From Gemmatimonadaceae bacterium (lineage in GTDB: Bacteria > Gemmatimonadota > Gemmatimonadetes > Gemmatimonadales > Gemmatimonadaceae): 64,000 nt of DNA. Made by a program: the position numbers and the translations under genes. This document shows positions 52,856-62,140 of this stretch, in pieces. Each line of letters starts with the position of its first letter. The first letter of the stretch is position 1. A model generated the notes under the pieces. The model ran no database searches and had not been told where the DNA came from. It saw nothing but the letters and a program-made list of their open reading frames with translations. The DNA lies in assembly GCA_020852815.1 (NCBI GenBank), contig JADZAN010000024.1:124001-188000 (forward strand), written 5' to 3'.

Positions 52856-54535
52856 GTGCCGCAGAGGTCGTTCGATGCCATCGTCGTGGGATCCGGCATT
52901 TCCGGAGGGTGGGCCGCGAAGGAGCTCACGGAGCGAGGGCTGCGGGTCCTGATGCTCGAGCGCGGCAAGAATGTCGAGCACATCAAGGACTACCCCAATG
53001 CGCGCAAGGCGCCGTGGGAGTATCCGCATCGCGGCGGGCGCACGCAGGCGATGATCAGGCACTACCCGGTGCTCAAGCGCGACTTCCCGCTCAACGAAAA
53101 GAACCTCGACTGGTGGGCCTCGGACGAGGAGTCGCCGTACACCGAGACCCGGCGCTTCGACTGGTATCGCGGCTACCAGGTGGGCGGGCGGTCGCTCATG
53201 TGGGGGCGTTGCAGCTTCCGCCTCTCCGACATCGACTTCGAGGCCAACGCGCGCGAAGGGATCGGGACCGACTGGCCCATCCGCTACGCCGAGCTTGCCC
53301 CGTGGTACAGCCACGCCGAGCGATTCGCCGGAATCTCGGGGTCGCTCGAGGGGCTGGCGCAGCTCCCCGATGGCGACTTCCAACCGGCGATGCCGCTCAA
53401 CTGCGCCGAGCAGCGAATGGCCGATCGCCTCAAGACCAAGTTCGGTGGCGCGCGTCGCCTGATCCCGGCGCGCATGGCCAACCTCACGCGAGCGCTAGAG
53501 GGGCGACAGCCATGCCAGTACCGCGATGCCTGCTGGTTAGGCTGCCCGTACGGCGGCTACTTCTGCACGCAGTCGTCGACGCTGCCGGCGGCCATGAAGA
53601 CGGGGCGCCTCACGCTCCTCCCGTTCGCCATCGCGACCGAAATCCTCTTCGACAAGAAGCGCCAGCGCGCCAGCGGCGTGCGAGTGATGGACGCCAACAC
53701 CAAGGCGATGACCGACTTCACGGCGACCATCATCTTCGTTTGCGCGTCCACGCTCAATTCGACGTGGCTCCTCCTGCGCTCGGCGACCGACATATGGCCC
53801 GGCGGGCTGGGGAGCAGCTCGGGGGAACTGGGGCACAACCTGATGGACCATCACTTTCGGGTGGGAGCGGAGGGGACGATGGCCGAGCTCGACGACCAGA
53901 CGACGTTCGGTCGCCGCCCTAACGCGGGCTACATTCCCCGCTTCCGCAACCTGAACGGGGAGAAGCGTCCGTACCTGCGTGGCTTTGGCTACGAAGGGGG
54001 AGCCGGGCGCCGCGGGTGGGAGTTCAAGGTGGCCGAACTTGGCGTGGGCGGCGCGTTCAAGGATCGTGCGGCGCAGCCTGGAACGTGGAGCATCGGCGGG
54101 ACCGCGTTCGGCGAGATGCTCCCCAACCACGACAACAAGGTCACCCTCGACCCCGAGAAGCGTGACAAGTGGGGGCTCCCGGTGCTTCGCATGGATTGCG
54201 CGATTGGGGAGAACGAGCGGCTGATGCGGAAGGACATGGCCAACGACATGGCCGAGATGCTGGAAGCGGCCGGGGCGAGGGAAGTGACGACGTTCGATCA
54301 CGACTACTTCCCCGGGATGGGGATTCATGAGATGGGGACGGCGCGGATGGGGACGAGCCCGAAGAACTCGGTGCTCAACAGGCACAACCAAGTCTGGGAC
54401 GCCCCGAACGTCTTTGTCACCGACGGCTCGTGCATGGCGTCGACGGCGTGCCAGAATCCGTCGCTGACCTACATGGCGCTGACGGCGCGGGCGGCGGCGT
54501 TTGCGGTGGAGGAGATGAAGAAGCGGAACCTCTGA
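52856..54535 (+). CDS. GMC-family FAD-dependent dehydrogenase, first paralogue
   Basis: 559 residues from GTG. FAD motif FDAIVVGSGISGGWAAKEL at about 6-24, with VGGRSLMWGRCSFRLSDIDF, the cysteine-containing CWLGCPYGGYFCTQSSTLP and the C-terminal active-site region GMGIHEMGTARMG (catalytic His) and CQNPSLTYMALTARAA. It resembles gluconate 2-dehydrogenase large subunits and glucoside 3-dehydrogenases. No signal peptide; export would be as a complex with the Tat-type subunit 3 at 56.5 kb. About three quarters identical by eye to the next gene. Confidence 0.93.
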   Translation: MPQRSFDAIVVGSGISGGWAAKELTERGLRVLMLERGKNVEHIKDYPNARKAPWEYPHRGGRTQAMIRHYPVLKRDFPLNEKNLDWWASDEESPYTETRRFDWYRGYQVGGRSLMWGRCSFRLSDIDFEANAREGIGTDWPIRYAELAPWYSHAERFAGISGSLEGLAQLPDGDFQPAMPLNCAEQRMADRLKTKFGGARRLIPARMANLTRALEGRQPCQYRDACWLGCPYGGYFCTQSSTLPAAMKTGRLTLLPFAIATEILFDKKRQRASGVRVMDANTKAMTDFTATIIFVCASTLNSTWLLLRSATDIWPGGLGSSSGELGHNLMDHHFRVGAEGTMAELDDQTTFGRRPNAGYIPRFRNLNGEKRPYLRGFGYEGGAGRRGWEFKVAELGVGGAFKDRAAQPGTWSIGGTAFGEMLPNHDNKVTLDPEKRDKWGLPVLRMDCAIGENERLMRKDMANDMAEMLEAAGAREVTTFDHDYFPGMGIHEMGTARMGTSPKNSVLNRHNQVWDAPNVFVTDGSCMASTACQNPSLTYMALTARAAAFAVEEMKKRNL

Positions 54536-54539
54536 AGTG

Positions 54540-54575
54540 CAGAAGACGAGAGGACGGGAAGACGAGAAGACGAGG
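54540..54575. repeat. AGAAGACGAG array between the GMC genes
   Basis: It begins five bases after the first GMC stop. A short inverted piece (TCTCGTCTTCTGTCC, about 54619-54633) follows. Confidence 0.85.
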
Positions 54576-54769
54576 GCGGGCGGCAACCGGCGCCGAGTCC
54601 TGCGCCCCAAGGCCGATATCTCGTCTTCTGTCCCCAATCAGGTTTCGAGCCCATATTATCGCCCCAGCAGGGAGGGATTCCTCTCCCGTTCGACAGCGGC
54701 CGGGGCGGTGAGTCCCGGGCCTGTCTTGGTCGCCAGGTGTGGCACCGTTTCCAGCACAAGGAGGATGGA

Positions 54770-56449
54770 GTGCAAGAGACGCAGTACGATGCGATCGTCG
54801 TCGGCTCAGGGATCGCTGGCGGATGGGCCGCCAAGGAGCTGACGGAGAAGGGGCTCCGCGTCCTCCTGCTCGAGCGGGGGAAGAACATCGAGCACATCAA
54901 GGACTACGTGAACGCGCGGAAGGGGACGTGGGAGTATCCCCATCGCGGGCGTCGCACGCAGAAGATGTACAACGAGTACCCCGTGCTGCGGCGCGACTAC
55001 CCGCTCAACGAGACCAACCTCGACTGGTGGGAGCGAGACGACGAGTCGCCGTACACCGAGGTCAAGCGCTTCGACTGGTATCGCGGCTATCACGTGGGCG
55101 GGCGTTCGCTGTTGTGGGGGCGGCAGAGCTATCGCTTGAGCGACATCGACTTCACGGCGAACGTCAAGGACGGGATCGCCACCGACTGGCCCATCCGCTA
55201 CGCCGACATTGCGCCGTGGTACGACTATGTCGAGCAGTTCGCCGGGATCTCCGGGTCGAACGAAGGGCTCGAGCAGCTCCCCGACGGCAAGTTGCAGCCG
55301 GCCTTCCCGCTCAATTGCGGTGAAGAGCAGGTGGCGGGGAAGCTCAAGACCAAGTTCGGTGGCACGCGCCGCATCATTCCCGGACGGGTGGCCAACATCA
55401 CGCAGCCGCTGCCGGGGCGCAACCAGTGCCAACTGCGAAATGCCTGCTGGCTCGGCTGCCCCTACGGCGGCTACTTCAGCACGCAGTCGTCGACGCTTCC
55501 GGCGGCGATGAAGACCGGGAAGCTCACGCTCAAGCCGTGGTCCATTGTCACCGAAGTCATCTACGACAAGGACGCCAAGCGCGCCAAGGGGGTGCGGGTC
55601 CTCGACGCGACGAACAACCAGACGGTCGACTACTCGGCGAAGATCGTCTTCCTCTGCGCCTCGGCGCTCAACTCCACCTGGCTCCTGATGCGCTCGGCCA
55701 CCGAGTTATGGCCCGGCGGGTTGGGCTCCAGCTCTGGCGAGTTAGGGCACAACCTGATGGACCATCACTTCAGGCTGGGCGCATCGGGTGACCTCGAGGG
55801 ACTGGACGACCAGTACTACTACGGGCGCCGCCCCACCGGCTTCTACATCCCGCGCTTCCGCAACATCGGGCGCGACAAGCGCGAGTACCTGCGCGGCTTC
55901 GGCTACCAGGGGAGCGCGAGCCGCGAGGGGTGGGATCGCGCGGTGGCTGAACTTGGCGTGGGCGGGGCGTTCAAGGACGCGATGGCGCAGCCCGGGCAGT
56001 GGACCATCGGGGCGACCGCCTTTGGCGAGATGCTCCCCGACCACAAGAACATGATCTCGATCGACGAGACGAAGAAGGACAAGTGGGGGCTCCCGGTCCT
56101 CAAGATCGACTGCGCCATTGGCGAGAACGAGCGCAAGATGCGCAAGGACATGACCGCCGACATGGCCGAGATGCTGGAGGCGAGCGGCGTGAAGAACGTG
56201 CACACGTACGACGGCGGCTACTGGCCGGGGATGGGGATCCACGAGATGGGGACGGCGCGCATGGGGACCGACGCCAAGAACTCGGTGCTCAACAAGCACA
56301 ACCAGGTGTGGGACGCGCCGAACGTCTTCGTGACCGACGGGGCGGCGATGACGTCGGCGGCATGCGTGAACCCGTCGCTGACCTACATGGCGCTGACGGC
56401 GCGCGCGGCGGCATTTGCCGTCGAGGCGCTCAACAAGCGCGAGTTGTGA
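54770..56449 (+). CDS. GMC-family FAD-dependent dehydrogenase, second paralogue
   Basis: 559 residues. GTG start chosen because AGGAGG lies five bases upstream and the alignment with the first paralogue then begins at the same point (VQETQYDAIVVGSGIAGGWAAKEL). Same motifs: VGGRSLLWGRQSYRL, CWLGCPYGGYFSTQSSTLP, IHEMGTARMG and CVNPSLTYMALTARAA. Differences cluster in the substrate half (ASGDLEGLDDQYYYGRRPTGFYIP against AEGTMAELDDQTTFGRRPNAGYIP), which suggests related but different substrates. Subunit 3 follows 58 bases later. Confidence 0.94.
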   Translation: MQETQYDAIVVGSGIAGGWAAKELTEKGLRVLLLERGKNIEHIKDYVNARKGTWEYPHRGRRTQKMYNEYPVLRRDYPLNETNLDWWERDDESPYTEVKRFDWYRGYHVGGRSLLWGRQSYRLSDIDFTANVKDGIATDWPIRYADIAPWYDYVEQFAGISGSNEGLEQLPDGKLQPAFPLNCGEEQVAGKLKTKFGGTRRIIPGRVANITQPLPGRNQCQLRNACWLGCPYGGYFSTQSSTLPAAMKTGKLTLKPWSIVTEVIYDKDAKRAKGVRVLDATNNQTVDYSAKIVFLCASALNSTWLLMRSATELWPGGLGSSSGELGHNLMDHHFRLGASGDLEGLDDQYYYGRRPTGFYIPRFRNIGRDKREYLRGFGYQGSASREGWDRAVAELGVGGAFKDAMAQPGQWTIGATAFGEMLPDHKNMISIDETKKDKWGLPVLKIDCAIGENERKMRKDMTADMAEMLEASGVKNVHTYDGGYWPGMGIHEMGTARMGTDAKNSVLNKHNQVWDAPNVFVTDGAAMTSAACVNPSLTYMALTARAAAFAVEALNKREL

Positions 56450-56507
56450 CCCGCCGTCCCGGACCGTTGCCCGCCAAGACTAACGACACAGAGCTGAGTG
56501 ACCGGAC

Positions 56508-57161
56508 ATGCCTGACGAGATGACGCCGCAGTTCGTGATCGACCGCCGCGAGGCGATCCGTCGCGTGAGCGCGATGCTGGGCGGGGCCGCCTTCATTGGC
56601 GGGACCTCCCTCCTGGCCGCGTGCACCAGGGAGCCCGCGGCCAAGGTGGACAGCGCCGTCGCCACCGCGGCAGGTGCAACGCCCGAGCCGCCGCTGACCA
56701 TGTTCACCGCCGAGGAGGTGGCCTACCTCGACGAGATCGCCGAGACCATCCTCCCGCGCACCGCGACACCGGGGGCCAAGGACGCCAGGACGGGGCGCTT
56801 CATGGGCGTGATGGTGCAGGACTGCTACAAGCCGGAAGACCAGGAGATCTTCAAGCAGGGGCTGGCGACGATCAACGACGCCTGCACCAAGGCGCACGGC
56901 CACGGCTTCATGCAGGCCACGCCGGAACACCGCACCGAGATCCTGACAGCGATCGACAAGGAAGCGAAGGACTATCAGGACAAGAAGAAGGACGACGATC
57001 CGAACCACTACTTCCGAATGATCAAGGAGCTGACGCTGCTCGGCTTCTTCACGTCGGAGGTGGGGATGACGAAGGTGCTGCGGTACGCGGAGACGCCCGG
57101 GCGGTATGATCCGTGTGTGCCGTACGCGAAGGGGGAGACGATCTGGGCGAGTCACGCCTGA
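56508..57161 (+). CDS. gluconate 2-dehydrogenase subunit 3 family protein, Tat/lipobox signal
   Basis: 217 residues. The N-terminus has twin arginines (DRREAIRRVSAM) before a hydrophobic stretch ending LLAAC with Cys39, so it is probably a Tat-exported lipoprotein. The mature part fits the subunit-3 family: MFTAEEVAYLDEIAETILPRTATPGAKDA and KELTLLGFFTSEVGMTKVLRYAETPGRYDPCVPY. It would carry the co-folded GMC dehydrogenase across the membrane. A terminator follows. No cytochrome subunit is encoded. Confidence 0.93.
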   Translation: MPDEMTPQFVIDRREAIRRVSAMLGGAAFIGGTSLLAACTREPAAKVDSAVATAAGATPEPPLTMFTAEEVAYLDEIAETILPRTATPGAKDARTGRFMGVMVQDCYKPEDQEIFKQGLATINDACTKAHGHGFMQATPEHRTEILTAIDKEAKDYQDKKKDDDPNHYFRMIKELTLLGFFTSEVGMTKVLRYAETPGRYDPCVPYAKGETIWASHA

Positions 57162-57684: not shown

Positions 57685-57804
57685 AGACGCTGAGAGACTC
57701 TGGAAGGAGCAGGGCTCAGCAGCTGACATTCTCGTCGCCGAGTACTGCGCGCCGAGTAGTTGTGCTGCATTCGTTGGCGGTTTGCTTCTGCGAGGGCTCC
57801 CGTC

Positions 57805-58566
57805 ATGTGGGATGTCGGCTCCGTGACCGCGCAGCGCGTAGATGGCCGGAGGTTCAGACGAGCGCGGAACGTGGTTGTTGCGACACTTCTCATGCTGATA
57901 CTGGCGCATGTCGCTTCCGCACAGGCAACGTCAGATCGCTTGCTTGGCGTGTACGATCCCGACACCGGCGCGCCGATCGAGAACGTGCAGATCGTGTTGC
58001 TCGGCAGCCGCAAGGAGTGGCGAACCTCCGCCGCGGGCCTGGCGCTCCTCCGAGATCTGCCCGCAGGTGATCACATCTTGCGCCTGAGGCGAATCGGGTA
58101 CAAGCCGCACTCGGAGTTTGTTGCGTTCTCGCCGCGCGACACGGCGCCCCTCACGCTCGTTCTTCAACCGCTCCCAGTCCAACTACCGGAGATCATCGTG
58201 AATGCACGCGAGGAGCGATACGAACGGCAACTGAGTGATTTCATGCAACGAAGAAGAGCCAGCGCCGCGCCCGCGTCCTCCTTTATCACAGAAGCCGACC
58301 TTCAGAAGTGGGGCGCGGTGCGCTGGAGCGATGCGTTAGCGCGAACGTCTGGCGTGCGGACCGGAGTATCGGGCGCCGTCTCATTGCGAGGTTGTGCGCG
58401 ATTTGCCCTATATGTCGATGGAGCGTTGCTCGCGAGCAACGACCTCGAGGCAATCCCGCTCCCAACCGTCGCCGCCATCGAGGTATATCGAGGGGCCGCA
58501 GAGATCCCGGTGCAGTTCAATGCTACTGGACGTGCATGCGGCGCAGTGGTCGTCTGGACGAGATGA
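57805..58566 (+). CDS. exported carboxypeptidase-regulatory-like plus TonB-plug-like protein
   Basis: 253 residues. A signal peptide (VVVATLLMLILAHVASAQ) is followed by a CarboxypepD-regulatory-like domain (GVYDPDTGAPIENVQIVLLG, LLRDLPAGDHILRLRRIGYKPHSE) and a plug-like domain (LQKWGAVRWSDALARTSGVRTG ... LYVDGALLASNDLEAIPLPTVAAIEVYRGAAEIPVQF). The 22-strand barrel of a TonB receptor is absent, and the protein ends after the plug, as in many stand-alone plug proteins in Gemmatimonadota. The gene is less GC-rich than its neighbours. Function unknown. Confidence 0.75.
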   Translation: MWDVGSVTAQRVDGRRFRRARNVVVATLLMLILAHVASAQATSDRLLGVYDPDTGAPIENVQIVLLGSRKEWRTSAAGLALLRDLPAGDHILRLRRIGYKPHSEFVAFSPRDTAPLTLVLQPLPVQLPEIIVNAREERYERQLSDFMQRRRASAAPASSFITEADLQKWGAVRWSDALARTSGVRTGVSGAVSLRGCARFALYVDGALLASNDLEAIPLPTVAAIEVYRGAAEIPVQFNATGRACGAVVVWTR

Positions 58567-58686: not shown

Positions 58687-61600
58687 CTATTGCAGCTCAC
58701 TTAGAAGTCGCCCCAGCACGCCGACCACCCACTCTGCGTCGTCCCGCCCAACCGTGAGCGGCGGCCGGATCTTCAGCACGTTGTCCGCCGGCCCCTCGGT
58801 ACCGATGAGGATGCGCTCCTCGCGCAACCGGTTCACGACGTAGCTCGCCGCCGCTGTCGCCGGCGCGCGGGATTCGCGGTCGGTGACGAGGTCAACACCG
58901 ATGAACAGCCCCATCCCTCGCACGTCGCCGATGAGCGCGTGACGCGATTGCAGCTCGCGGAGCCCTGCGAGGAGGTGGTTACCGACGACGCGGGCGCTCG
59001 CCTGGAGCCCTTCGTCCCGCACGATGCGCAGTACCTCGGTCCCCACGCGGCACGACAGCGTGCTCCCGCCGAACGTGGAGAAGAACTCGATCCCGTTGTC
59101 AAACGAGCGCGCGATCTCGGAAGTGGTGACGACAGCGCCCAGCGGGTGGCCGTTGCCTAACGGCTTGCCGAGTACGACGATGTCGGGGCGGGCCCCCTGG
59201 TGCTCGAAGCCCCAGAAGAAGTCGCCGAGTCGCCCGATTCCGGTCTGCACCTCGTCGGCGATGCAGATTCCGCCGGCGGCACGGACGCGGTCGTACACGG
59301 CAGCGAGATAGCCGACCGGCGGGATGATCTGCCCGCCGACGCTGGGAAACGTCTCGGCGATGAAGCCGGCGAGCCGTCCGCCGCGCGCGTGGATGCGGGC
59401 GATGGCGTCGTCGACGTGTTCGGCGTAGCGCACGGCAGCGTCGTCGCCGCGGTGCTCGCCGCGATAGGTGTCGGCGACCGGGACGAGTTGCACCCACTCG
59501 GGGCGCCCGCCGCCGTTCGGCTTGTTGAACTTGTACGCCGACAGGTCGTAGGCACCGGTGGTGTGGCCGTGGTAGCCGTGGTCGGGGGTGACCATGTCCT
59601 TCCCCCCGGTGTACGTCCTCGCCAGCCGCAACGCCAGCTCGTTCCCCTCGCTCCCCGAGTTGACGAAGAAGACGTGCGTGAGGTGCGGTGGCATCCTGGC
59701 CAGCAACTCCTCGGCGAAGGCCACCTGCAGCGGGTGGAGGTAGCGCGTGTTGGTGTTGAGGCGCGCGAGCTGGTCGGCGGCGATCGCGGCGAGGCGCGGG
59801 TGCGCGTGGCCGACGTGCGGGACGTTGTTGTAGGCGTCCAGGTGCACGCGCCCCCACTCGTCGAACAGGTAGTGCTTCCACCCGCGCACGAAGAGCAGCG
59901 GCTCGCGATACGACAGCTTGAGGTTCGTCGCGAAGTGCGCCTTCCGCCCGGCGCAGATGAGCTCCGTATCGAGCGCCTGGTACGCGACGCGTTCGTCAGG
60001 GAGGTTGAGGAGCGCCGCGGGGTTGGGGCAGATCGCCGTCCAGAGCGCGAGGTCGTCCGGGTCGGCGACGCCGGGCCAGTCGCCGGCCATGCCGTCGGTG
60101 AGCACCGCCAGCTGAAAGTGCAGGTGCGGGTCCCACCCGCCGTTCTCTTCCATCTCTCCTAACGCGCCGAAGCGCTCGCCGCGCGCGATCATCTGCCCCG
60201 GACGCAACGATTCGACGCTGGCGCGCGAGAGGTGGCCATACAGCGTCCAGAACGGATCGCCGTCGGGGGTGACGTGCCTCAGCACGACCATCCCGCCGTA
60301 GTCGAGCCGCGACTCGCGATACTCGACCGCGTCGACCGTGCCGGCAGTCGGCGCGTGCACGGGCGACCCGGCGGGGAGGAAGGTGTCGACGCCGATGTGC
60401 ACCGAGCGACGGTCGGCGATGGGGTGCGCTCCCTTGCGGAAGGCGGGGGCGGTGTAGACGGCGCGCGGTTCGCCGTAGCTCCCCACCCACGCGGCCCCGG
60501 CGTTGGCCGCCGAGCCTAACGAGCGCGCCTCGTCCTCCGTCATCATCATCGCATCGCGCGGGACGAGTGCGGAGCGGATGGCGAGCGAGCCCGTGGCGAT
60601 GGTCGCCAGGTCGATCCCCATCACCGGGGCGAAGGACCCCCGCTGCTCGTCCAGCCATGCCAGCACGCGCGTCGCGCGATCGTTGGCGCGGTAGCCGCAG
60701 GCCACGCGCAGGCGGGCGCACATCTGTCCGTCGGCGATCGTGCGGGCGCGCTCGAGGTAGCCCCAGGCCAGCGATTCGGAGACGACGACATACGGGTCGT
60801 CGGGACGCTCGCGCTTCATGAGCATCGCGTTGGTGACACTCACCGCCAGCCGCATCAGGAGGAGCGGCCAGATGAGGTCGAGCTGTGCCGGCGTGAGCGG
60901 CGAGACGGCGTGATAGCCGGCGACGAAGGCGGCGAGGGCGCGCTCGGGGTGCGGGTGATCGAGCACGAGATAGGCGCCGGCGATCGCGAGCTCGCACACA
61001 AGGGGACCGGTGACGATGTCGCCGAAGTCGATTATACCAGCGAGGCACGGAGTGCCTCGCTGTTGGATAGCCCCCGCGCGTGGTGCACCATGCTCGCTCC
61101 GTGCGACCAGGATGTTCCAGTCGTTCAGATCGTTATGCAGCACCGCGCGCGGTTGGGCGTGGAGCGGTCCCCTGATGGCGTCGAAACGCAGCCACGCATC
61201 GGCCACCAGTTCCTGCTGCGCACGTGTGGCCAGGTCGTCGATGTGGTGCATGACCCAGTCGGCACGCGTGAGATCCCACTTGAAGTCGGGGCGCTCGAGC
61301 GCGGGGTGCGCGAAGCCGGTGAGCGCCGAGTGCATGCGCGCGACCGCGGCGCCCAGCTCGCGAAGCAGGGAGGGCGGTCGCGGTTGCGCGCGCGCGTACT
61401 CGACGCCTGGCAGGAGCGTGAGGAGCCAGGTGAGGCGTGGAGTGCCGTCGGCGTCGTGTCGCACGCACCAGCGCTCACCGCCCGTCGTGCGCACCACGGC
61501 TGGGACGGGGACCGTCGCGTCGTGTTCGCGAATGTACTCGTGCGCCGCCGCGAGCAGGTCGACAAACGCCGGATCGCATGCGGGGCGCATGACCTTGAGG

Positions 61601-61740
61601 ATGAACTGCGCGCCGTCAGCGGCCGTGACGCGGAAGTTGAGGTCGAACTCGCCGGCGAGCGGTTCGAGTACCCCCTCCATCCCCCACGACTCCGCCAACG
61701 CCTCGCGCCACACGCGCGTCGACTCCGGGCGATCGCTCAT
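58687..61740 (-). CDS. fusion: APH-type kinase, M23 peptidase domain and class-III aminotransferase-fold enzyme
   Basis: 1,017 residues, three domains. Residues 1-350: aminoglycoside-phosphotransferase-like kinase with LHNDLNDWNIL (His202, Asp204, Asn209) and IIDFGD (Asp238), similar to hydroxylysine-kinase types. Residues 430-575: M23-like domain with intact ligands HIGVD (His448, Asp452), YGHLS (His503) and DPHLHF (His539, His541). Residues 590-1017: class-III PLP enzyme with NSGSEGNE, ADEVQTG and PLP Lys859 in VLGKPLGNG. The AGXT2L family of this fold includes phospho-lyases acting on phosphoethanolamine or phosphohydroxylysine, so kinase and lyase could act in sequence. The start ATG is one base from the ridA stop. 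Confidence 0.9.
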   Translation of the reverse strand: MSDRPESTRVWREALAESWGMEGVLEPLAGEFDLNFRVTAADGAQFILKVMRPACDPAFVDLLAAAHEYIREHDATVPVPAVVRTTGGERWCVRHDADGTPRLTWLLTLLPGVEYARAQPRPPSLLRELGAAVARMHSALTGFAHPALERPDFKWDLTRADWVMHHIDDLATRAQQELVADAWLRFDAIRGPLHAQPRAVLHNDLNDWNILVARSEHGAPRAGAIQQRGTPCLAGIIDFGDIVTGPLVCELAIAGAYLVLDHPHPERALAAFVAGYHAVSPLTPAQLDLIWPLLLMRLAVSVTNAMLMKRERPDDPYVVVSESLAWGYLERARTIADGQMCARLRVACGYRANDRATRVLAWLDEQRGSFAPVMGIDLATIATGSLAIRSALVPRDAMMMTEDEARSLGSAANAGAAWVGSYGEPRAVYTAPAFRKGAHPIADRRSVHIGVDTFLPAGSPVHAPTAGTVDAVEYRESRLDYGGMVVLRHVTPDGDPFWTLYGHLSRASVESLRPGQMIARGERFGALGEMEENGGWDPHLHFQLAVLTDGMAGDWPGVADPDDLALWTAICPNPAALLNLPDERVAYQALDTELICAGRKAHFATNLKLSYREPLLFVRGWKHYLFDEWGRVHLDAYNNVPHVGHAHPRLAAIAADQLARLNTNTRYLHPLQVAFAEELLARMPPHLTHVFFVNSGSEGNELALRLARTYTGGKDMVTPDHGYHGHTTGAYDLSAYKFNKPNGGGRPEWVQLVPVADTYRGEHRGDDAAVRYAEHVDDAIARIHARGGRLAGFIAETFPSVGGQIIPPVGYLAAVYDRVRAAGGICIADEVQTGIGRLGDFFWGFEHQGARPDIVVLGKPLGNGHPLGAVVTTSEIARSFDNGIEFFSTFGGSTLSCRVGTEVLRIVRDEGLQASARVVGNHLLAGLRELQSRHALIGDVRGMGLFIGVDLVTDRESRAPATAAASYVVNRLREERILIGTEGPADNVLKIRPPLTVGRDDAEWVVGVLGRLLSELQ

Positions 61741-61741
61741 C

Positions 61742-62140
61742 TCACGGCCGATAGGCGACGCAGTCAATCTCCACCTTCAACCCCTCGCGCGGGAGCTTCG
61801 ACACCTCGACCGTGGTGCGCGCCGGACGGTTGTCGCCGAAGACGCGTGCGTACACGGCGTTCATCTCCTGGAACTCGTTCATGTCGGTGAGAAAGACGCC
61901 GCAGCGCAGGACGTACTGCATGTCGGAGCCAGCCGCCTGGAGAATGGCCCGCACATTCCTGAGGCACTGCTCCGTCTGCGCCGTCGCGTCGGCGCCGGCG
62001 AGGAACCCAGTCGCCGGGTCGACCGCGCCCTGCCCGGAGACGAAGATCAAGCGCTCGAAGCCGACGGCGGGGGAATACGGGCCAACCGGCGTCGGGAGAT
62101 TGGGGGCGTGGACGAAGGTGTGCGTCAGGGAGCTCGGCAT
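61742..62140 (-). CDS. ridA: RidA/YjgF family enamine/imine deaminase
   Basis: 132 residues: YSPAVGFERLIFVSGQGAVDPATGFLAGADATAQTEQCLRNV, the Arg of RCGVFLTDM, and ARTTVEVSKLPREGLKVEIDCVAY. RidA removes reactive enamine or imine intermediates released by PLP enzymes. It lies directly upstream of, and nearly overlaps, the PLP-containing fusion protein gene, which makes a protective role for that enzyme likely. ATG chosen by family length; a longer frame is not supported. Confidence 0.94.
   Translation of the reverse strand: MPSSLTHTFVHAPNLPTPVGPYSPAVGFERLIFVSGQGAVDPATGFLAGADATAQTEQCLRNVRAILQAAGSDMQYVLRCGVFLTDMNEFQEMNAVYARVFGDNRPARTTVEVSKLPREGLKVEIDCVAYRP

What the first reader, a model, noticed from the sequence alone, without database searches (positions are those of the whole stretch)
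58687..61740. Kinase, M23 peptidase and PLP phospho-lyase-like enzyme in one chain, next to RidA
All active-site residues of the three domains seem intact (His202/Asp204/Asp238; His448/Asp452/His539/His541; Lys859). A kinase plus an AGXT2L-type PLP domain makes sense as phosphorylate-then-eliminate, as for hydroxylysine or ethanolamine. The M23 domain, usually a peptidoglycan endopeptidase, does not fit the cytoplasm; no signal peptide is present. It may act on a peptide-linked amino alcohol or may be a repurposed metal-binding module. RidA fits removal of an enamine or imine intermediate released by the elimination.
Basis: partly seen in the sequence, partly recalled or inferred. Interest (0 to 1): 0.72.

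Follow-up and report, generated by a model that had tools for sequence, protein, structure and literature searches.

The report
Three-in-one enzyme for amino alcohols
A bacterial protein joins a kinase, a zinc peptidase-like domain and a vitamin-B6 enzyme in one chain; the two ends most likely break down small amino alcohols in two steps, as related enzymes in humans and bacteria do, while the job of the middle domain, odd inside a cell, is still open.

Summary
The architecture is known: 1386 bits (cut-off 1128) against NCBIfam NF004799/PRK06148, "hypothetical protein".

The PLP domain sits in a fully supported clade with both solved phospho-lyases (human ETNPPL, Arthrobacter A1RDF1), apart from the other class-III enzymes tested. 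The kinase is its partner: of 13 phylum genomes with a close lyase match but no M23, kinase and lyase are fused in 7, adjacent in 5, unresolved in 1. Phosphorylate-then-eliminate is well supported; the substrate (1-amino-2-propanol, ethanolamine, hydroxylysine) is undetermined.

M23 is optional for that core, yet its five metal/catalytic residues are invariant in 101 of 101 collected triple fusions, it changes more slowly than the kinase, and it also occurs as free proteins without an evident export signal. One further fusion has lost these residues. So M23 is probably an active cytosolic hydrolase, perhaps releasing the amino alcohol from an amide.

RidA lies one nucleotide away, but directly beside the fusion in only 2 of 103 loci. 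New member of a known, uncharacterised family.

The parts
58687..61740 (-). Fusion gene, 1017 aa, ATG start at 61740; NCBIfam NF004799 (PRK06148) member
   Evidence: Translation; NF004799 1386 bits vs cut-off 1128
60895..61665 (-). Kinase domain, residues 26-282 (Pfam APH); H202/D204, N209, D238
   Evidence: Pfam; D204, N209, D238 in 103 of 103 and H202 in 100 of 103 fused loci; kinase-only model pLDDT 89, best fold matches homoserine, amicoumacin, N-acetylhexosamine and aminopropanol kinases
60499..60705 (-). Linker, residues 346-414; least conserved part in 4 of 7 close comparisons; a similar stretch precedes M23 in the free M23 proteins
60106..60402 (-). M23 domain core, residues 447-545; H448, D452, H503, H539, H541
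   Evidence: Pfam; five residues in 101 of 101 collected triple fusions, lost in one further fusion, L194; sequence relatives TagE, ShyA, lysostaphin in PDB
58711..59892 (-). PLP domain, residues 617-1010; Lys859; phospho-lyase subfamily
   Evidence: Pfam; 6tor ETNPPL 428.8 bits, 5g4i 313 bits, next class-III 195 bits; clade support 100/100; 15 diagnostic positions
61742..62140 (-). RidA (Ribonuc_L-PSP) gene, 132 aa, immediately upstream, 1-nt gap to the fusion's ATG
   Evidence: Pfam E 1.1e-36; gap read; direct adjacency in 2 of 103 loci

Best explanation
A cytosolic catabolic enzyme. The N-terminal APH-fold kinase phosphorylates the hydroxyl of a small amino alcohol with ATP; the C-terminal PLP domain eliminates phosphate and ammonia from the O-phospho amino alcohol, giving an enamine/imine that becomes an aldehyde. 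In this genus RidA, encoded just upstream, may speed the last hydrolysis. The central M23 domain is an intact zinc-hydrolase domain that is not needed for the two core steps and probably prepares the substrate, for example by hydrolysing an amide or short-peptide bond that blocks the amine. Shown by sequence: domain identity, intact residues, lyase-clade membership, kinase-lyase coupling, optional but constrained M23. Inferred: the reactions, the substrate (1-amino-2-propanol or ethanolamine ahead of hydroxylysine), the RidA role and the M23 amide-hydrolase role.
For: PLP domain: best solved relatives are human ETNPPL (428.8 bits) and Arthrobacter phospholyase (313), next class-III enzyme 195, same two first by fold; a fully supported clade holds all kinase-linked forms put on the tree plus both phospho-lyases and an R. 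jostii microcompartment-locus enzyme and excludes the other class-III enzymes put on it; the window has the clade residue at 15 of 15 positions that set the clade apart. Kinase-lyase coupling: of 13 genomes in 298 with a close lyase match (E <= 1e-150) but no M23, 7 are kinase-lyase fusions, 5 adjacent pairs, 1 cut by a contig end; six annotated plasmid loci carry adjacent phosphotransferase and lyase genes. Catabolic context in some loci: amino-acid or amine transporters nearby; microcompartment locus with kinase, lyase, aldehyde dehydrogenase and ethanolamine permease. M23: invariant residues, dN below the kinase's in 7 of 7 comparisons (six distinct relatives), free M23-only proteins with the residues intact.
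Against: No enzymatic data for any kinase-M23-lyase fusion were found in my searches. Kinase fold matches do not fix a substrate: N-acetylhexosamine, homoserine, aminopropanol and antibiotic kinases all score high, and the kinase alone has no sequence match in the PDB at E <= 1. RidA is directly beside the fusion in only 2 of 103 loci. One SDR oxidoreductase type lies near the kinase in only 3 of 6 annotated two-gene loci and in none of 20 loci searched, three of which are the other three two-gene loci. One fusion (L194) keeps kinase and lyase but a degenerate M23 without the GH and HxH motifs. Free M23 genes have no kinase or lyase beside them and no common neighbour that tells a function, so the M23 job need not concern the amino alcohol. 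EutB and the fusion do not co-occur in 246 genomes, but p = 0.07, not significant.
Confidence: 0.7

Rival explanations
1. A hydroxylysine enzyme: M23 frees hydroxylysine from Gly-containing (collagen-type) peptides taken into the cell, the kinase makes 5-phosphohydroxylysine and the PLP domain makes aminoadipate semialdehyde, as HYKK and PHYKPL do in animals (recalled).
For: The PLP domain groups with human ETNPPL, whose paralogue PHYKPL acts on phosphohydroxylysine (recalled); known M23 enzymes often cut after Gly (recalled); two of the loci come from bone-eating-worm (Osedax) symbiont assemblies (L045, L057).
Against: Most of the 80 genome loci are titled with Rhodobacteraceae names, with no evident tie to collagen; no aminoadipate-semialdehyde gene is named in the five annotated triple-fusion loci, although one has an aldehyde dehydrogenase gene about 7 kb upstream (annotation incomplete); two-gene and microcompartment relatives point to small amino alcohols.
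Confidence: 0.12
2. The M23 domain is a non-catalytic spacer, regulatory or metal-storing module; only kinase and lyase act.
For: M23 is absent from 13 of 121 phylum genomes with a close lyase match (12 resolved as kinase-lyase pairs); its presence changes at least 6 times on the best tree; one fusion (L194) keeps a degenerate M23 domain between kinase and lyase.
Against: H448, D452, H503, H539 and H541 are invariant in 101 of 101 collected triple fusions and present in all nine free M23 proteins (read); dN is lower than the kinase's in 7 of 7 comparisons.
Confidence: 0.27
3. An ordinary omega-transaminase with a kinase of unrelated substrate, joined by chance.
For: Most characterised class-III enzymes are transaminases (PMC8154272, passages), and databases name the relatives aminotransferases.
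Against: Phylogenetic bracketing by two phospho-lyases and diagnostic residues; kinase kept with the lyase in 12 of 12 resolvable M23-less loci in the phylum (with L115).
Confidence: 0.07
4. A cell-wall recycling enzyme: M23 cuts imported muropeptides and the other domains process the released amine.
For: The M23 relatives with solved structures include cell-wall endopeptidases such as ShyA, lysostaphin and LytM.
Against: No gene named for muropeptide recycling appears in the annotated neighbourhoods (annotation incomplete), and the lyase clade's known members handle O-phospho amino alcohols, which are not known muropeptide parts (recalled).
Confidence: 0.06

Closest known systems
NCBIfam NF004799 / PRK06148.1 (subfamily, 'hypothetical protein')
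   Same: Same length, domain order and full-length match above cut-off (1386 vs 1128 bits)
   Different: No function is assigned, so there is nothing to contrast
Human ethanolamine-phosphate phospho-lyase ETNPPL/AGXT2L1 (PDB 6TOR)
   Same: PLP domain 48% identical, same clade, 14 of 15 diagnostic residues
   Different: Its PDB chain (499 residues) matches only the PLP domain
Arthrobacter aurescens PLP phospholyase A1RDF1 (PDB 5G4I)
   Same: 41% identical, same clade, 14 of 15 diagnostic residues
   Different: 446-residue chain, more distant; groups with two-gene and microcompartment forms
1-amino-2-propanol/aminoacetone (RMM, Aaum, Aut) microcompartment pathway of Rhodococcus and Mycobacterium
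   Same: Phosphotransferase plus lyase-clade 'aminotransferase' in one shell-gene locus (that this locus is of the RMM type is my reading of its genes); kinase fold matches 6EF6
   Different: Separate genes beside shell genes; kinase only 48 bits against this kinase profile; no M23 annotated. PMC6620236 (section 14 read) proposes a transaminase instead of a phospho-lyase
M23 endopeptidases (TagE, ShyA, lysostaphin, LytM)
   Same: HxxxD, GH and HxH motifs; E from 9.6e-9 to 6e-3
   Different: Those are exported enzymes, mostly of the cell wall (recalled); this type has no evident export signal and carries an NGGWxPHxHxQ-like motif
Hydroxylysine kinase HYKK/AGPHD1 with PHYKPL/AGXT2L2 (recalled; JBC 2012 paper not held)
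   Same: Same two-step logic in animals (recalled)

Membership tests
NF004799 / PRK06148 | Whole-protein score above curated cut-off 1128 bits | tested here: met
   1386 bits over residues 7-1015
NF004800 / PRK06149 | Whole-protein score above curated cut-off 973 bits | tested here: not met
   719.7 bits
ETNPPL-type PLP phospho-lyase | Schiff-base Lys and placement with characterised phospho-lyases | tested here: met
   K859 in 103 of 103; clade 100/100 with 6TOR and 5G4I
ETNPPL-type PLP phospho-lyase | Residues that set the clade apart from other class-III enzymes | tested here: met
   15 of 15 positions carry the clade residue; positions were defined on a set of 44 that includes the window, against 20 others
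ETNPPL-type PLP phospho-lyase | Eliminates phosphate from an O-phospho amino alcohol | not testable with these tools
   Needs an assay
APH-fold small-molecule kinase | Catalytic HxDxxxxN and metal-binding Asp | tested here: met
   D204, N209, D238 in 103 of 103; H202 in 100 of 103, Tyr in 3
Amino-alcohol (aminopropanol, ethanolamine, hydroxylysine) kinase | Substrate specificity | tested here: inconclusive
   Fold matches include 6EF6 (Z 24.8), but N-acetylhexosamine and homoserine kinases score 27
Peptidase family M23 | HxxxD, GH and HxH residues | tested here: met
   All in the window; invariant in 101 of 101 collected triple fusions; lost in L194
Secreted peptidoglycan M23 endopeptidase | Export signal | tested here: not met
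   Simple hydropathy scan, not a signal-peptide predictor: none of 103 fused frames reaches the threshold near the N-terminus
RMM/Aaum microcompartment pathway | Shell genes in the same locus | tested here: not met
   The genome's only two BMC (PF00936) matches are on contig C10; the fusion is on C24

The most novel reading that the evidence does not exclude
The M23 domain founds a cytosolic branch of M23 that works as a small-molecule amidase: it frees an amino alcohol from an amide (for example a Gly- or D-Ala-linked amino alcohol) and feeds the attached kinase and phospho-lyase, a three-step line in one chain. The free M23 proteins of Rhodobacteraceae would then do the first step alone. The ETNPPL type of phospho-lyase would have diversified among such bacterial fusions before animals had it as a lone enzyme.
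Probability: 0.3. Interest if true: 0.7.

Novelty: new member of a known kind. Interest (0 to 1): 0.48.

Why it matters
A widespread family listed as a hypothetical protein or "aminotransferase" gets a testable reaction: kinase plus phospho-lyase on an amino alcohol, a B12-free route for a common class of amines. It argues against the transaminase label. It also gives a case of M23 domains apparently kept inside the cell, free and fused, with intact active sites, which opens the question of what M23 does outside cell-wall cleavage.

Tried and rejected
Ethanolamine ammonia-lyase as a marker: EutB in 2 of 60 genomes, own included, 0 of 33 fusion genomes (34 of 80 loci given, one not held), 19 of 246 Rhodobacteraceae against a fusion match in 31 of 246, overlap 0, Fisher one-sided p = 0.07. 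No correction for relatedness. Not used as evidence.

Conserved neighbours of the fusion: in Rhodobacteraceae mostly lineage-specific; by my own reading of the sequences a copper ATPase, a HAD phosphatase, a hydroxyacid-dehydrogenase-like gene and ferrochelatase. Several clusters are opposite-strand shadow ORFs of my crude gene caller, so no functional link is claimed.

SDR link to 1-amino-2-propanol dehydrogenase: related SDR genes (63-80% identical) near the kinase in 3 of 6 annotated two-gene loci; the SDR beside the S. meliloti triple fusion is of another type (30-33%); none in the 20 loci searched; weak SDR hits (48-54 bits) lie within 4 kb in six further loci of 122. The annotated microcompartment locus L169 shows no SDR gene. 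The SDRs were not compared with the characterised dehydrogenase.

M23 outside the fusion: in 298 phylum genomes the 109 positives are fusion frames or pieces of them. Ten loci with short or odd frames were fetched: seven run into a contig end, one has a frame break inside M23 (L163), two are long fusion frames (L164, L168); G420 was not fetched, but both its pieces start at contig ends. In 246 Rhodobacteraceae genomes 39 had a strong match (E <= 3e-37), 30 of them in fusion-length frames and nine in M23-only genes; of these nine L189 is divergent and the start of L190 is uncertain. Nine further genomes had only weak matches (49-58 bits), not counted. G105 has the fusion but no M23 match; its locus L194 has a degenerate M23 (25.6 bits).

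Bias: the genome scan used six peptide patterns, one of them in M23 and one in the linker, and kept the best 80 of 142 relatives, so M23-bearing forms are favoured there. The counts in 298 genomes are by separate profiles, but the lyase threshold (E <= 1e-150) leaves out distant lyases.

Trees: one search used 34 of 101 triple fusions, 4 of 15 stand-alone PLP rows and 2 of 5 outgroup rows; one search used all 15 and 5. The 15 stand-alone PLP loci of the relatives (L116-L130) have no kinase of this type within the fetched stretches.

Literature: ten full-text searches list no paper on the kinase-M23-PLP fusion; only the top of long lists was shown. One table lists PRK06148 as the domain hit of a Mycoplasma lipoprotein (PMC8249566, passage). 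Open-licence PMC papers only. Seen as passages: PMC8154272, PMC8249566, PMC5731063, PMC8007038, PMC6787980, PMC6620236 (and section 14). The hydroxylysine kinase/phospho-lyase paper (JBC 2012) and the aminopropanol kinase paper (JBC 2018) are not held and are cited from recall or other papers' reference lists.
Full report
What is there. The gene on the minus strand at 58687-61740 reads without interruption for 1017 codons. Pfam finds APH (26-282), Peptidase_M23 (447-545) and Aminotran_3 (617-1010). NCBIfam NF004799 (PRK06148.1, subfamily, 'hypothetical protein') matches over residues 7-1015 with 1386 bits against a cut-off of 1128; the sister model PRK06149 stays below its cut-off. The architecture is therefore known to databases, without a function. 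A RidA gene ends one nucleotide before the fusion's ATG.

How common. Of 60 genomes (own and relatives) 15 pass the family cut-off. A scan of a genome collection found 142 relatives and kept the best 80, mostly titled with Rhodobacteraceae names, some Gemmatimonadota, Oceanospirillaceae and others; 89 plasmid records cover at least 80% of the protein in one place. I collected 103 loci with kinase and PLP domain in one frame after dropping 16 repeat fetches from 119; at least one pair (L027, L132) is still the same contig, and many loci are closely related Ruegeria. Of these 101 have M23 and 2 do not.

The PLP domain is a phospho-lyase by descent. Among solved structures it matches human ETNPPL with 428.8 bits and Arthrobacter A1RDF1 with 313, then dialkylglycine decarboxylase with 195; Foldseek with the predicted full-length model (mean pLDDT 80) ranks the same two first. 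On trees, the fused and two-gene forms plus both phospho-lyases form one clade (quick tree 100; careful tree 100/100 on a branch of length 1.01), and the other class-III enzymes of this and related genomes that were included fall outside. Fifteen positions separate the clade from the others in that alignment; the window has the clade residue at all fifteen, ETNPPL and A1RDF1 at fourteen each. The enzyme from an R. jostii microcompartment locus lies in the sub-clade with A1RDF1 (100/98).

The kinase is its partner. In 298 genomes of the phylum (own included) 121 have a close lyase-type match (E <= 1e-150) and 109 the M23 subfamily. The 13 genomes with such a match but no M23 comprise 7 kinase-lyase fusions, 5 adjacent kinase and lyase genes and 1 cut by a contig end (one of the seven, L181, shows only the end of the kinase at a contig edge). 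On plasmids the same pair occurs as adjacent genes in Rahnella, Chelatococcus, Haematobacter, Pseudomonas mandelii, Azospirillum and Klebsiella and as a two-domain fusion in Pannonibacter. Three of nine Rhodobacteraceae genomes with a free M23 also have the adjacent pair, elsewhere in the genome. The kinase-only model (pLDDT 89) is closest in fold to N-acetylhexosamine kinase, homoserine kinase, microcompartment aminopropanol kinase 6EF6 and amicoumacin kinase: the right kind of enzyme, but not a substrate.

The M23 domain. H448, D452, H503, H539 and H541 are invariant in 101 of 101 collected triple fusions. Against this, one further Rhodobacteraceae fusion, L194, keeps kinase (287 bits) and lyase (559 bits) but a degenerate M23 (25.6 bits) in which the GH and HxH motifs are gone. 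In seven comparisons with close relatives (six distinct, two of them near-identical) dN of M23 is 0.16-0.33 against 0.30-0.41 for the kinase, with dS 0.7-1.2 for these two domains. On the best PLP-domain tree M23 presence changes at least 6 times (well-supported branches alone force fewer), most simply repeated loss, although the root of the clade is not resolved. In 298 phylum genomes I found this M23 subfamily only in the fusion or pieces of it. In 246 Rhodobacteraceae genomes nine carry it as a gene of its own, mostly about 300 aa, with a linker-like region in front, 51-56% identical to the Paracoccus fusion for the seven aligned, all five residues present and no evident signal peptide by eye; none of the nine has the triple fusion. 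No fused frame has a hydrophobic N-terminus (0 of 103). Most likely M23 is a working cytosolic hydrolase, useful but not essential to the kinase-lyase reaction. What it hydrolyses is not shown; releasing an amide-linked amino alcohol is my inference.

Substrate. No single answer: ETNPPL uses O-phosphoethanolamine, PHYKPL phosphohydroxylysine (both recalled), and the microcompartment pathway uses 1-amino-2-propanol (PMC6620236, section 14 and passages; PMC8007038 and PMC6787980, passages). SDR genes in 3 of 6 annotated two-gene loci and an ethanolamine permease in the microcompartment locus favour small amino alcohols. EutB and the fusion do not co-occur in 246 genomes, but this is not significant.

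RidA. RidA stands directly beside the fusion only in the window and in one genome of the same genus; a RidA gene lies about 4 kb away in Shinella, and one weak hit lies in a fourth locus (flanks differ in length). So it is a local addition rather than part of the system.

Verdict. Observation confirmed; kinase-lyase interpretation supported; M23 role open but better constrained than before; a known, unassigned family.

Noticed in passing
L182-L190 (Rhodobacteraceae genomes G200, G277, G189, G178, G114, G184, G231, G095, G234): Free M23 proteins without evident signal peptide, same subfamily as the fused domain; no neighbour common to all nine (an IlvD-like gene, by my reading, in four).
   Followed up: partly
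L194:980 onward (+) (G105): A kinase-M23-lyase fusion whose M23 domain has lost its GH and HxH motifs while kinase and lyase score well: a natural M23-dead form.
   Followed up: partly
G000 contig C10:317597-318125 (outside the window): The window's genome carries two microcompartment shell (BMC) genes side by side, as do both same-genus genomes; five other fusion-bearing relatives searched (G003, G005, G007, G010, G038) have none. No NF004799 match lies on that contig, so it does not look like an aminopropanol-type locus.
   Followed up: partly
window 52856-57158 (+): Two GMC oxidoreductases in tandem followed by a gluconate 2-dehydrogenase subunit 3 gene: probably a sugar/alcohol dehydrogenase set with a duplicated large subunit.
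   Followed up: no
window 57760-58566 (+): A 268-aa protein with a carboxypeptidase-regulatory-like domain and a TonB receptor plug domain; Pfam shows no barrel.
   Followed up: no
L169 (R. jostii RHA1 pRHL2): The microcompartment 'aminotransferase' falls in the phospho-lyase clade, against the transaminase role proposed for such loci in PMC6620236.
   Followed up: partly
L164 (G484), L163 (G384): One fusion frame of 1568 aa with an insertion inside M23, and one with a frame break inside M23: decay or assembly error.
   Followed up: no
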